Part shown: positions 3,850 to 6,670 of the stretch, in pieces | Layout of the letters: each line of letters opens with the position of its first letter | Position numbering within the stretch: position 1 is the stretch's first letter | From: Anaerolineales bacterium | Lineage (GTDB): Bacteria > Chloroflexota > Anaerolineae > 4572-78 > J111 | Direction of reading: 5' to 3' | NCBI GenBank assembly: GCA_012032575.1 | Contig: JAAUSP010000292.1 | Location: forward strand, 1 to 9,083 | DNA: 9,083 nt | Position numbers and translations under genes: made by a program | Notes under the pieces: generated by a model | Database searches by the model: none | What the model was told of the DNA's origin: nothing | What the model saw: the letters and a program-made list of their open reading frames with translations, nothing else

Positions 3850-4839
3850 ATGCCGCCAATGACCAAAACGGAACAGAACCTTTGGCACGAAAATCAGACG
3901 CTGCGCCAACAGTTGAAAGAAGCCGAAGCTGTGATTCAGGCCCTTCGCCTCGACCCGGCCGAGGCGCTGGTTATTCCCGGCCCTCAAGGCGAGCCGGTTT
4001 ACTCGCTGATTGGGGCCGAGCGCCAATATCGGGTGTTTATCGAGGCGATGAATGAAGGCGCGCTCACCCTATCCAGTGATGGAGTTATCCTTTACGGCAA
4101 CAATCGTTTGGCCGAACTGGTCAGGCTGCCGCTTGAAAAAGTAATCGGTGCATCTATTTATCAGTTTGTTGCTCTGGGCGACGAAGCCAAACTGCGCGGG
4201 TTGTTAACCCAAAGCGGGGCGGAAGATAATCGGGCCGAGATCAGCCTCAAAGCCGGGGATGGCAGCATGGTTCCCTGTTACTTTTCAATCCGCTCCCTGG
4301 TTGTGGACGAATTCAAGGGATTTTGCATGGTTGTTACCGATTTAACCGAATTGGTGGCGGCCAGACTGGCCCTTGAACATGTCAGGCAGCGCGAGCAGCA
4401 AGAGCATGAATTTCACCGTTTGCTTAAATTGGCCGGGGCTGCTCGCAGCGCTGTTACCGCCGAACTGTTTGGGCTGGCCCCCCTGCGCCAGAATTTGCCG
4501 GACATGTTTGAACAATTTGTAAAGCGTTATGCCCAGGTACTCGACCTGGCCCTGGAACAACGCGCCTACAAAGTTGAGCACCACCTTTCTGAAGAACTCC
4601 AAACCATGGCCGAACAGTTGGGCTTTGTTAAAGCCGGGCCGCGCGACGTGATCGAAATCCACAGCGTGGCGCTGACCGAAAAGAGCCGGACCAGCACCTC
4701 GCTCAAGGCTCAGGCTTATCTGGAAGAGGGGCGGCTGCTGGTGCTGGAATTGATGGGCTATCTGGTCTCATTTTACCGTAATTTGGCGATCTGGGTTAAA
4801 CCCGGTGCGGTTTCCAAAAATGCCAAGACTCACGGATAA
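3850..4839 (+). CDS. PAS domain protein with C-terminal RsbU-N/KaiA-like helical domain, candidate KaiA analogue
   Basis: A soluble 329-residue protein. It has an N-terminal coiled coil (about 7-32), one PAS domain (about 57-168, with EAMNEGALTL and a typical DLTEL end), a helical linker (168-195), and a C-terminal helical domain (about 200-312). The last contains RAYKVEHHLSEEL (238-250), DVIEIH (266-271) and ELMGYLVSFYRN (300-311). This is the pattern of the RsbU N-terminal domain family, whose dimer is described as resembling the KaiA C-terminal domain. From memory, cyanobacterial KaiA has a similarly placed VLEIH and a closing Tyr-Arg helix. There is no PP2C phosphatase domain, so it is not RsbU itself. 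An in-frame stop at 3829-3831 limits the start; ATG 3850 has a weak GAG 6 bases upstream, and ATG 3859 is the alternative. The stop lies 10 bases before kaiB, so co-expression is likely. A role in stimulating KaiC phosphorylation is inference. Confidence 0.85.
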   Translation: MPPMTKTEQNLWHENQTLRQQLKEAEAVIQALRLDPAEALVIPGPQGEPVYSLIGAERQYRVFIEAMNEGALTLSSDGVILYGNNRLAELVRLPLEKVIGASIYQFVALGDEAKLRGLLTQSGAEDNRAEISLKAGDGSMVPCYFSIRSLVVDEFKGFCMVVTDLTELVAARLALEHVRQREQQEHEFHRLLKLAGAARSAVTAELFGLAPLRQNLPDMFEQFVKRYAQVLDLALEQRAYKVEHHLSEELQTMAEQLGFVKAGPRDVIEIHSVALTEKSRTSTSLKAQAYLEEGRLLVLELMGYLVSFYRNLAIWVKPGAVSKNAKTHG

Positions 4840-4844
4840 GAGGA
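4838..4844 (+). promoter_or_regulatory. kaiB ribosome binding site
   Basis: AAGAGGA at 4838-4844 overlaps the stop codon of the preceding gene and lies 5 bases before ATG 4850. It decides the kaiB start in favour of 4850 (or the adjacent ATG 4847) over the upstream GTG at 4805, and suggests translational coupling. Confidence 0.7.
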
Positions 4845-4849
4845 ATATG

Positions 4850-5155
4850 ATGAAAAACCATTTACTAAAACTGTATATTACGGGCCACACGCCCCGGTCT
4901 GAACGGGCGATCAGCCAGTTGCGCCAGATTTGCGAAACTGAACTGGCCGGTCAGTACGAACTGGTTATTATTGATATCCTGGAACGGCCCCAACTGGCCG
5001 AAGATGAGAAAATCTTGGCCACTCCCACCTTGATAAAGGTTTTGCCGCCACCGCTGCGCCGCGTTATTGGGGATCTATCTGACGTGGACAAAGTATTGCT
5101 TGGCCTCGATCTGGTGCCGCCGGTCAAGACTCACCTTGCGAAAGAAGAGGACTAA
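4850..5155 (+). CDS. kaiB: Circadian clock protein KaiB
   Basis: A 101-residue protein, about the length of cyanobacterial KaiB. It opens with the thioredoxin-like LKLYITGHTPRS (6-17) and continues with IDILERPQLAEDEKILATPT and the proline-rich KVLPPPLRRVIGDLS (63-77). KaiB refolds from a ground state into a thioredoxin-like fold that binds the CI ring of KaiC and sequesters KaiA. The two residues whose mutation changes fold switching in Synechococcus (Gly88, Asp90) correspond to Gly85 and Asp87 in LGLDL and are conserved. The start is chosen at ATG 4850 (4847 is adjacent) from the ribosome binding site; a longer form from GTG 4805 would add residues not expected in KaiB. The TAA overlaps the kaiC ATG by one base. 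It is a stand-alone KaiB, not the KaiB-like sensor domain of a SasA kinase. Confidence 0.96.
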   Translation: MKNHLLKLYITGHTPRSERAISQLRQICETELAGQYELVIIDILERPQLAEDEKILATPTLIKVLPPPLRRVIGDLSDVDKVLLGLDLVPPVKTHLAKEED

Positions 5156-5652
5156 TGGCTGTGATACAACAAGCTTCGATTCCGAAGTTGGAAACCCATA
5201 TCCCTGGTTTTGATTTTATTGCCAACGGCGGCCTGCCCCAGCGGCGGACTGTTTTGATTTCCGGCACCGCCGGCAGTGCTAAAACCGTATTTGCCGCACA
5301 GTTTCTGGCTAACGGTATTACCAGGGCTGATGAAAATGGGGTCTTTATTACCTTTGAAGAGCCGCCGGCCGATATCCGCGAGAATATGCTGGGCTTTGGC
5401 TGGGATATTGCCGCCTGGGAAGCCGCCGGACAGTGGGCCTTTGTGGACGCCTCGCCCGAACCGGGCCAGGAAATTATTATGGCCGGTGACTTTGACCTGG
5501 GCGCTTTACTGGCCCGCATTGAGTACGCGGTGCAGAAAGTCAAAGCCAAACGGGTTTCGCTGGATTCTTTGGGGGCAATTTTTACCCAATTTGCCGACGG
5601 GGCGACCGTGCGGGGTGAACTATTGCGCATTGCGGTACGCCTGAAAAGATGA
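5155..5652 (+). CDS. kaiC: kaiC segment 1 as read: N-terminal part of CI
   Basis: These 165 residues hold the CI Walker A, the Glu-Glu pair and Walker B, and stop at TGA 5650-5652 just after VRLKR. The next segment continues the same domain without loss of residues, so this is the first piece of one broken kaiC rather than an independent small protein. Confidence 0.7.
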   Translation: MAVIQQASIPKLETHIPGFDFIANGGLPQRRTVLISGTAGSAKTVFAAQFLANGITRADENGVFITFEEPPADIRENMLGFGWDIAAWEAAGQWAFVDASPEPGQEIIMAGDFDLGALLARIEYAVQKVKAKRVSLDSLGAIFTQFADGATVRGELLRIAVRLKR

Positions 5653-6670
5653 ATGTGACCGCAGTAATGACGGCTGAACGCACCCAGGAGTACGGCGAGA
5701 TTGCCCGCTATGGGGTAGAAGAGTTTGTGGCCGACAATGTGATTATTTTACGCAACGTGTTGGAGGAAGAGAAACGACGCCGGACCGTCGAAATTCTCAA
5801 ATTCCGGGGCACGTCTCACCAGAAAGGCGAATTCCCTTTTGCCATTATGCCTCACGAAGGGATTGTGGTCATTCCACTTTCGGCCTACGAGCTGAAACAG
5901 CGCTCTTCGGCGGTGCGAACCACCTCGGGCAACCCCACCCTGGACCAGATGTGTGGCGGCGGCTTTTTCCGTGATTCGATCATTCTGGTTTCCGGGCCAC
6001 CGGAACCGGCAAAACCCTGATGGTCACCGAATTTATCGCCGGGGCGGCCGCCAATAATGAGCGCTGTCTGCTGTTTGCCTTTGAAGAAAGCCGGGAACAG
6101 CTTTTCCGCAACGCCAGCGGCTGGGGCATTGATTTTGAGCAGATGGAACAGGAAAACAAACTGAAAGTGGTCTGCGAGTACCCGGAGGTATCGGGCCTGG
6201 AAGACCATCTGATCAACATGAAAGAAACTATCGGCACATTCAAGCCCCACCGGGTTGCCGTAGACAGCCTATCAGCCCTGGAGCGCGTCTCGACCGAGAA
6301 GGGCTTCCGCGAGTTTGTGCTGGGGTTGACTTCTTTTATCAAACATCAGGAAATGACCGGGCTGTTTACCTCTACCACCCCCACCTTGCTGGGCGGTACC
6401 TCGGTCACTGAGGCCCATATCTCGACTATTACCGATTCGATCGTTCTGCTGCGCTACGTGGAAATGTACGGCGAAATGCGCCGGGGGGTAACGGTACTGA
6501 AAATGCGCGGCTCGATGCACGATAAAGACATTCGGGAGTTTTCCATTGACGGCCAGGGTATGCACATTGGCCAGCCGTTTCGCAATATTACCGGCATTTT
6601 GGCCGGCCATCCGGTTCACCTGCCGCCCAGTGAAATCGAGCGGATGCAAGGGTTGTTCAGCACCGACTGA
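5155..6670 (+). CDS. kaiC: Circadian clock ATPase/kinase KaiC, interrupted by two frameshifts
   Basis: KaiC is a double RecA-like ATPase that forms hexamers, autophosphorylates and autodephosphorylates, and binds KaiB on CI and KaiA on its C-terminal tail. Restoring one A (run 5644-5647) and one G (run 5994-5996) gives one protein of about 505 residues, against 519 in Synechococcus elongatus. CI has Walker A GTAGSAKT (37-44), catalytic Glu68-Glu69 and Walker B Asp137. CII regains Walker A GATGTGKT (281-288), has a Glu-Glu pair in FAFEES, and holds phosphosites Ser424-Thr425 in AHISTITDS, with Thr419 at the position of Thr426. ATG 5155 is preceded by AGAGG (5146-5150) and overlaps the kaiB stop. 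CI Walker A has Ala in place of the usual second Gly, which I believe occurs in other KaiC relatives. The C-terminal tail is about 14 residues shorter than in Synechococcus. Confidence 0.93.
5644..5647 (+). other. Single-base deletion in A run within kaiC CI
   Basis: The A4 run should be A5. With one A restored, the frame reads LKKMNVTAVMTAER, as expected in CI. The -1 shift is not at a good slippery heptamer, because re-pairing of the Lys codon AAA to GAA would be poor, so programmed frameshifting is unlikely. Confidence 0.8.
5649..6020 (+). CDS. kaiC: kaiC segment 2 as read: end of CI, linker and start of CII
   Basis: These 123 residues begin at an ATG overlapping the previous stop (ATGA). 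They carry the rest of CI (VMTAER, ARYGVEEFV, LKFRGTSHQKGEFPF), then the CI-CII linker and the start of CII (FFRDSIILVSG). The frame breaks in the middle of the CII Walker A, reading PPEPAKP in place of ATGTGKT. A protein starting here would lack any complete nucleotide site. Confidence 0.6.
   Translation: MNVTAVMTAERTQEYGEIARYGVEEFVADNVIILRNVLEEEKRRRTVEILKFRGTSHQKGEFPFAIMPHEGIVVIPLSAYELKQRSSAVRTTSGNPTLDQMCGGGFFRDSIILVSGPPEPAKP
5994..5996 (+). other. Single-base deletion in G run within kaiC CII Walker A
   Basis: The G3 run should be G4. With one G restored the frame reads VSGATGTGKTLMVTEF, an intact P-loop identical in its core to that of cyanobacterial KaiC CII. No residue is otherwise missing. 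Confidence 0.9.
6020..6670 (+). CDS. kaiC: kaiC segment 3 as read: CII domain with phosphorylation sites
   Basis: These 216 residues begin at an ATG overlapping the previous TGA by one base, right after the CII P-loop. They hold the CII Glu-Glu pair (FAFEES), Walker B region (RVAVDSL), the phosphosites Ser (6422-6424) and Thr (6425-6427), MRGSMHDKDIREF and the short C-terminal tail. Without the P-loop this piece alone could not bind ATP normally. Confidence 0.7.
   Translation: MVTEFIAGAAANNERCLLFAFEESREQLFRNASGWGIDFEQMEQENKLKVVCEYPEVSGLEDHLINMKETIGTFKPHRVAVDSLSALERVSTEKGFREFVLGLTSFIKHQEMTGLFTSTTPTLLGGTSVTEAHISTITDSIVLLRYVEMYGEMRRGVTVLKMRGSMHDKDIREFSIDGQGMHIGQPFRNITGILAGHPVHLPPSEIERMQGLFSTD

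What the first reader, a model, noticed from the sequence alone, without database searches (positions are those of the whole stretch)
3850..6670. Candidate three-component KaiA-like/KaiB/KaiC clock with a non-canonical KaiA
KaiB and KaiC are clear, and the gene 10 bases upstream of kaiB encodes a protein whose C-terminal domain belongs to the RsbU-N/KaiA-C type. Established knowledge: the RsbU N-terminal domain dimer is described as similar to the KaiA C-terminal dimer, and cyanobacterial kaiA sits directly upstream of kaiBC. Seen here: the same gene order, tight spacing, and colinear motifs (VIEIH, then ELMGYLVSFYRN). Most kaiBC-bearing bacteria outside cyanobacteria are thought to lack KaiA. 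A KaiA analogue in this position would turn a KaiBC hourglass into a possible self-sustained oscillator.
Basis: partly seen in the sequence, partly recalled or inferred. Interest (0 to 1): 0.85.

Follow-up and report, generated by a model that had tools for sequence, protein, structure and literature searches.

The report
PAS-sensing KaiA in a kaiABC operon
A bacterial clock operon in which the KaiA-like protein has a typical KaiC-activating end but carries a sensor (PAS) domain of the kind found in histidine kinases, one of several such sensor swaps seen in bacteria outside the cyanobacteria.

Summary
ORF 3850-4839 (329 aa) ends 10 bases before kaiB, which overlaps kaiC by one base. Its C-terminal domain is 47-64% identical to those of 119 listed homologues, mostly of KaiA3 build (receiver + KaiA-like domain, PMC11372060). 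The fold search ranks KaiA first, RsbU well behind. In 75 of 80 genome loci with this domain kaiB follows within 700 nt; in 400 genomes of one phylum (Chloroflexota by record title) 33 have it, 32 directly before kaiB. So KaiA relatives outside cyanobacteria are common, and the receiver form is published. What I did not find in print is the sensor shuffling: here a PAS module replaces the receiver; 75 of its 80 other relatives found carry histidine-kinase domains, none the KaiA-type domain. Other loci have other PAS types, receiver-PAS-PAS, protoglobin or MASE3. Best reading: a clock-input protein whose PAS domain tunes KaiA-like stimulation of KaiC. Not shown: activity, ligand, oscillation. 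kaiC and both flanking kinases carry frame changes near short homopolymers, probably sequencing errors.

The parts
3850..4839 (+). kaiA-like gene: coiled coil + PAS + linker helix + KaiA/KaiA3-type C-terminal domain, 329 aa (a second in-frame ATG at 3859)
3850..4014 (+). N-terminal segment of the kinase-type sensor module (residues 1-55), mostly one helix
   Evidence: AF2 helix 6-31, pLDDT < 50 at 34-44; shared with signalling proteins, mostly histidine kinases
4042..4356 (+). PAS domain (residues 65-169); no His between residues 55 and 175, no NCRF motif
   Evidence: Pfam PF08448 E 1.2e-6; Foldseek PAS/LOV matches, best E 3.6e-9; residue check
4345..4437 (+). long linker helix (residues 166-196) joining PAS to the KaiA-type domain
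   Evidence: AF2 model, block pLDDT 85-92 to residue 190, 66 at 191-200
4420..4803 (+). KaiA/KaiA3-type C-terminal helical domain (residues 191-318)
4850..5155 (+). kaiB (101 aa)
   Evidence: PF07689 E 3e-28; NCBIfam PRK09301 123.1 bits over its cut-off of 110
5155..5652 (+). kaiC, first piece (most of CI), up to the first frame change
   Evidence: PF06745 E 5e-46
5649..6020 (+). kaiC, second piece (end of CI, start of CII), between the two frame changes
   Evidence: PF06745 E 1e-26
6020..6670 (+). kaiC, third piece (CII and tail); the CII Walker A falls at the second frame change and cannot be read
   Evidence: PF06745 E 3e-28; 57-80% identity, median 75%, to KaiC in 63 loci
6422..6427 (+). 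Ser-Thr pair at the place of the CII phosphosites (GGTSVTEAHISTITD)
   Evidence: sequence; ST found by pattern in 54 of 62 linked KaiC frames
6608..6667 (+). short KaiC C-terminal tail with an E-x-x-R-x-x-x-L-F motif
125..3373 (+). upstream hybrid histidine kinase (REC, PAS domains, GAF, HisKA, HATPase, second REC), frame change near 3250
6709..9000 (+). downstream hybrid histidine kinase, 38 nt after kaiC, 43% identical to the upstream one over 780 residues, frame change near 8960

Best explanation
The gene encodes a sensor-swapped KaiA of the KaiA3 kind. The C-terminal helical domain would dimerise, hold the KaiC C-terminal tail/A-loop and raise KaiC autophosphorylation; KaiB bound to phosphorylated KaiC would oppose it, as in KaiABC and (in part) KaiA3B3C3. 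In place of the receiver (KaiA3) or pseudo-receiver (KaiA) it has a PAS module of the histidine-kinase kind joined by a long helix, so a small molecule or redox cue could set KaiA output directly, without a kinase. More generally the KaiA-type C-terminal domain looks like a portable clock-coupling module joined to various sensors and usually encoded just upstream of kaiB. Shown: domain homology, predicted fold, linkage, sensor exchange, kinship of the PAS module with kinases. Inferred: KaiC activation, PAS control, oscillation.
Confidence: 0.78

Rival explanations
1. The C-terminal domain stimulates KaiC, but with KaiB it forms only a signal-driven hourglass or stress timer: the PAS input sets KaiC phosphorylation and no free-running rhythm exists.
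For: KaiA3B3C3 in vitro was dampened (PMC11372060). Some carriers are lineages usually not phototrophic, such as Desulfobacteraceae and Nitrospirota (record titles; physiology from general knowledge). A directly sensing KaiA makes a driven timer plausible.
Against: The domain set resembles the one that oscillates in Synechocystis; KaiC tail and phosphosites are of the KaiA-dependent kind.
Confidence: 0.4
2. The domain is RsbU_N/RsbR-like and recruits a stress-signalling kinase or phosphatase (partner switching); its position before kaiBC is regulatory company only.
Against: KaiA structures fill Foldseek ranks 1-9; linkage to kaiB in 75 of 80 loci and 32 of 33 genomes of the phylum sample; no partner-switching domain among the eight window ORFs scanned; KaiA3 binds KaiC3 (PMC11372060).
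Confidence: 0.06
3. The locus is decaying: the frameshifted kaiC is a pseudogene and the KaiA-like protein has no clock left to drive.
For: Two frame changes in kaiC, one in each flanking kinase; the second one in kaiC hits the CII Walker A.
Against: The four places, judged by eye, lie at or near short homopolymers or base doublets and affect every long gene, while the KaiA-like and kaiB frames are open; the third kaiC piece still has a median 75% identity to relatives. This looks like sequencing error. Not tested with reads.
Confidence: 0.1

Closest known systems
KaiA3 (Sll0485) of Synechocystis sp. PCC 6803 and its KaiA3-KaiB3-KaiC3 system (PMC11372060)
   Same: C-terminal KaiA-like domain; gene directly upstream of kaiB; KaiC nearer to KaiA3-type-linked KaiC (median identity of the two CI pieces 63 and 74%, n 63) than to canonical-KaiA-linked KaiC (50 and 62%, n 10); Roseiflexus and Chloroflexus are among the carriers named there.
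   Different: PAS module of histidine-kinase kind instead of the NarL-type receiver with its Asp, so no phosphorelay input expected. The words 'PAS domain' do not occur in that paper's main text (supplements not seen).
Canonical KaiA of cyanobacteria (Pfam PF07688)
   Same: Predicted C-terminal fold, position before kaiBC, shared IH and YR positions.
   Different: 17% identity over 94 aligned columns, no Pfam match; N-terminal PAS instead of pseudo-receiver; the His of the canonical AHL motif is Tyr here (GYL; that this His matters in KaiA is recalled, from no call).
RsbU and RsbR N-terminal domains
   Same: Similar helical fold.
   Different: Weaker match than KaiA for RsbU (rank 30); no kaiBC linkage known to me (recalled).
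Rhodobacter KaiBC hourglass (PMC10076222)
   Same: kaiBC operon; a PAS-domain protein or kinase lies near kaiBC in purple bacteria (PMC6627678, PMC10931921, passages).
   Different: No KaiA there; KaiC with a ~50-residue C-terminal extension, absent here.

Membership tests
KaiA3 family (sensu PMC11372060) | C-terminal KaiA-like domain homologous to KaiA3 | tested here: met
   the tie to KaiA3 itself is by genus, length and gene order (Microcystis, Roseiflexus); Sll0485 was not aligned
KaiA3 family (sensu PMC11372060) | gene directly upstream of kaiB (kaiC) | tested here: met
KaiA3 family (sensu PMC11372060) | N-terminal NarL-type receiver domain | tested here: not met
   PAS instead
KaiA3 family (sensu PMC11372060) | binds KaiC and stimulates its phosphorylation | not testable with these tools
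   needs protein assays
Canonical KaiA (PF07688) | Pfam KaiA model over its curated cut-off | tested here: not met
   no match in the window protein; 1 of 15 family members at E 0.044
Canonical KaiA (PF07688) | KaiA C-terminal helical fold | tested here: met
   predicted model only: with the caution on helical bundles and E-values above 0.1
Canonical KaiA (PF07688) | dimerisation and binding of the KaiC tail | not testable with these tools
   not listed at E <= 1 for the window protein nor at E <= 10 among 15 members
   RsbU 1w53 at rank 30, probability 0.41

The most novel reading that the evidence does not exclude
KaiA does not belong to cyanobacteria alone: its C-terminal domain is a widespread, portable clock-coupling module that bacteria of several phyla have joined repeatedly to different sensors (receiver, several PAS types, protoglobin, MASE3), so that oxygen, redox or metabolite cues feed straight into a KaiBC timer; the window carries a PAS version of histidine-kinase kind.
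Probability: 0.55. Interest if true: 0.8.

Novelty: new variant of a known kind. Interest (0 to 1): 0.62.

Why it matters
Surveys have described timers outside cyanobacteria as KaiBC-only or KaiC-only (PMC5520375, passages). In the phylum sampled here 32 of 41 kaiB-bearing genomes carry a KaiA-type domain, in all 32 directly before a kaiB, so whether they keep time like KaiABC becomes testable with three proteins. The swapped sensors make entrainment testable in one step: change the ligand of the PAS or protoglobin domain and watch KaiC phosphorylation.

Tried and rejected
Chance resemblance to RsbU_N was rejected: family, predicted fold and linkage agree on KaiA. A sequence search of solved structures with the C-terminal profile found no KaiA or RsbU, only glucokinase and other weak matches (best E 0.026); with the whole window protein only weak PAS-type and other matches. 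So the tie to KaiA rests on fold, a weak profile-profile score, one near-cut-off Pfam match and linkage. A heptad rule for the PAS-domain linker was looked for and not found: one spacing holds 21 of 36 measured rows (the window protein counted twice, as P0001 and window), and the window is not in it. The usual light- or haem-binding PAS features are not seen (no NCRF motif, no His in residues 55-175), so the ligand is unknown. The window's taxon stayed open: nearest rows are mostly Chloroflexota, with no well-supported clade. The consensus scan listed promoter- and terminator-like sites somewhat above the shuffles, none that I could tie to the operon; Rfam gave nothing.
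Full report
What is there. The window holds five main genes on the + strand: a hybrid histidine kinase (125-3373), the ORF in question (3850-4839), kaiB (4850-5155), kaiC (5155-6670, in three pieces) and a second hybrid kinase (6709-9000), 43% identical to the first over 780 residues. The three middle genes are packed like an operon: 10 bases between the first stop and the kaiB ATG at 4850, a one-base overlap of kaiB and kaiC, 38 bases to the second kinase.

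The C-terminal domain. Residues 191-318 have no Pfam family. A search of 5.8 billion proteins gave 329 hits at E <= 0.001, of which the best 120 are listed (only the 7998 candidates sharing most words were scored). All 120 listed match through this domain; the 119 other than the window are 47-64% identical. By local profiles 84 are receiver + domain, 23 PAS + domain (the window among them), 13 receiver-PAS-PAS + domain. The Microcystis 'response regulators' among them correspond in genus, length and gene order to KaiA3 of PMC11372060 (abstract, outline, section 6, part 1 of the discussion and passages read). KaiA3 is a receiver plus KaiA-like C-terminus; with KaiB3 and KaiC3 it gave a dampened oscillator in vitro. 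I did not align Sll0485 itself. The seven Microcystis loci have kaiB but no kaiC in the DNA held; that paper names M. aeruginosa NIES-843 as an exception where kaiC3 lies elsewhere.

Linkage. A scan of species genomes found 142 relatives; the best 80 were kept: 36 Cyanobacteriota, 23 Chloroflexota, 6 Pseudomonadota, 5 Nitrospirota, 3 Thermodesulfobacteriota, 2 Planctomycetota and 5 others or unranked. In 75 of 80, kaiB lies within 700 nt downstream on the same strand; in 63 of 80, kaiC within 1.5 kb. Without kaiB: L065, L068 (kaiC present), L071, L072, L074. In 400 genomes of the phylum of G001 (the genome of L077, titled Chloroflexi bacterium; same draw in both calls; at most 10 and 13 candidates scored per genome, so counts are lower bounds) the domain is in 33, KaiB over cut-off in 41, both in 32; in those 32 a domain gene lies within 700 nt before a kaiB; Fisher p 6e-38, not corrected for kinship. 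The one genome without is G079. Of the 48 domain matches 16 are not next to a kaiB. Nine of the 41 kaiB genomes lack the domain.

Sensors. Of the 80 loci (receiver and PAS by local profiles at E < 0.05, ten proteins checked with Pfam): receiver alone 60, PAS alone 10, receiver-PAS-PAS 3, receiver-PAS 1, PAS-PAS-PAS 1, protoglobin 1 (L079, Methylobacter), MASE3 with a sub-threshold GAF match 1 (L073, Desulfobacteraceae), no Pfam family 1 (L038), N-terminus cut off 2. Among the 60, L005 has only part of a receiver. Two PAS-alone loci (L044, L063) start at a contig end, so more domains may precede. All 36 cyanobacterial loci have a receiver alone. The phylum survey adds a PAS-PAS group of nine loci (open frames of 410-438 aa, one cut at 393), eight of them directly before kaiBC. 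On the C-domain tree (64 rows after dropping 17 near copies) receiver against other needs 8 changes with the cut-off rows left out (9 with them); on a KaiB + KaiC-CI tree (61 rows; near copies and incomplete rows dropped) 9 (10 with them). Branches with full support force only 2 and 4. The second tree used the simpler model, its bootstrap had not settled, and two long branches meet in it. The window's own N-terminal 190 residues have no convincing match to any N-terminus among the loci (best E 0.005), but 80 other relatives in the database at E <= 0.001 (only proteins of about 180-575 aa could be found): by the precomputed Pfam columns 75 of 80 carry histidine-kinase domains, and none has the KaiA-type domain. 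So it is a chimera of a kinase-type sensor and a KaiA3-type output. No second copy of this chimera is among the hits listed in the two protein searches.

KaiC. The two CI pieces have median identities of 63% (range 52-70) and 74% (61-84) to KaiC beside KaiA3-type genes (n 63), against 50% (49-51) and 62% (61-69) beside canonical KaiA (n 10). The CII phosphosite stretch reads GGTSVTEAHISTITD; among 62 linked KaiC frames 54 have ST by pattern, 1 SS, 7 do not fit the pattern (L002, for one, still reads HIST, and the L005 frame is itself shifted). The tail after GILAG is 20 residues, in relatives 18-33 (61 of 62 measured), and 60 of 62 fit a loose E..R...F pattern. This lacks the long extension by which Rhodobacter KaiC does without KaiA (PMC10076222 passages), which fits a KaiA-dependent KaiC; that is inference.

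Frame changes. kaiC has two, each kinase one, by eye at or near short homopolymers or base doublets. The second in kaiC falls in the CII Walker A. Affecting every long gene, they look like sequencing errors; reads would decide.

Mechanism. Shown: domains, predicted fold, order, linkage, exchange of sensors. Inferred from KaiA3 and KaiA: dimerisation, binding of the KaiC tail, kinase stimulation, opposition by KaiB. Inferred from anatomy: the PAS cue reaches the output domain through the helix 166-196. Ligand unknown.

Novelty. [quoted passage not shown] other N-terminal domains (OmpR-like, REC, AtoC, PHA02030) of cyanobacterial KaiA (PMC8113500 passages). I found no paper on PAS, protoglobin or MASE3 versions in ten searches of the open-access library, most seen as listings only; one work that PMC11372060 cites for KaiA orthologues outside cyanobacteria (its reference 55) was not identified. 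Subscription journals and preprints are not held. Hence: new variant of a known kind.

Noticed in passing
L079:5326-6420 (Methylobacter MAG): KaiA-type domain fused to a protoglobin (Pfam E 1.6e-33) directly before kaiBC: a possible oxygen-reading clock input.
   Followed up: partly
L073:4780-6354 (Desulfobacteraceae MAG): KaiA-type domain behind a MASE3 membrane sensor (E 1.8e-94) and a weak GAF match, before kaiBC.
   Followed up: partly
L040 (record titled Candidatus Helarchaeota archaeon MAG): Receiver + KaiA-type gene followed by kaiB-kaiC-kaiB-kaiC on a 605-kb contig of an archaeal MAG; transfer or binning error not examined.
   Followed up: no
L094, L096-L099, L101-L103, L107: Receiver + KaiA-type proteins without kaiB in the roughly 1.5 kb held on either side (less at contig ends); genomes such as G244 and G212 have a second copy next to kaiB. 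Possible antagonists or second inputs.
   Followed up: no
L100, L104-L106, L108-L112: PAS-PAS-KaiA-type proteins, before kaiBC in all but L104, which lies at a contig end.
   Followed up: partly
window 125-3373 and 6709-9000: Two related hybrid histidine kinases flank the operon; the PAS region of the first matches that of receiver-PAS-PAS-KaiA proteins (42% in L037, 28-32% in L001 and L036), suggesting module exchange between kinases and KaiA.
   Followed up: partly
window 5155-5652: CI Walker A reads GTAGSAKT (Ala before Lys-Thr); the same TAGSAKT stretch occurs in 18 of 62 related KaiC frames.
   Followed up: partly
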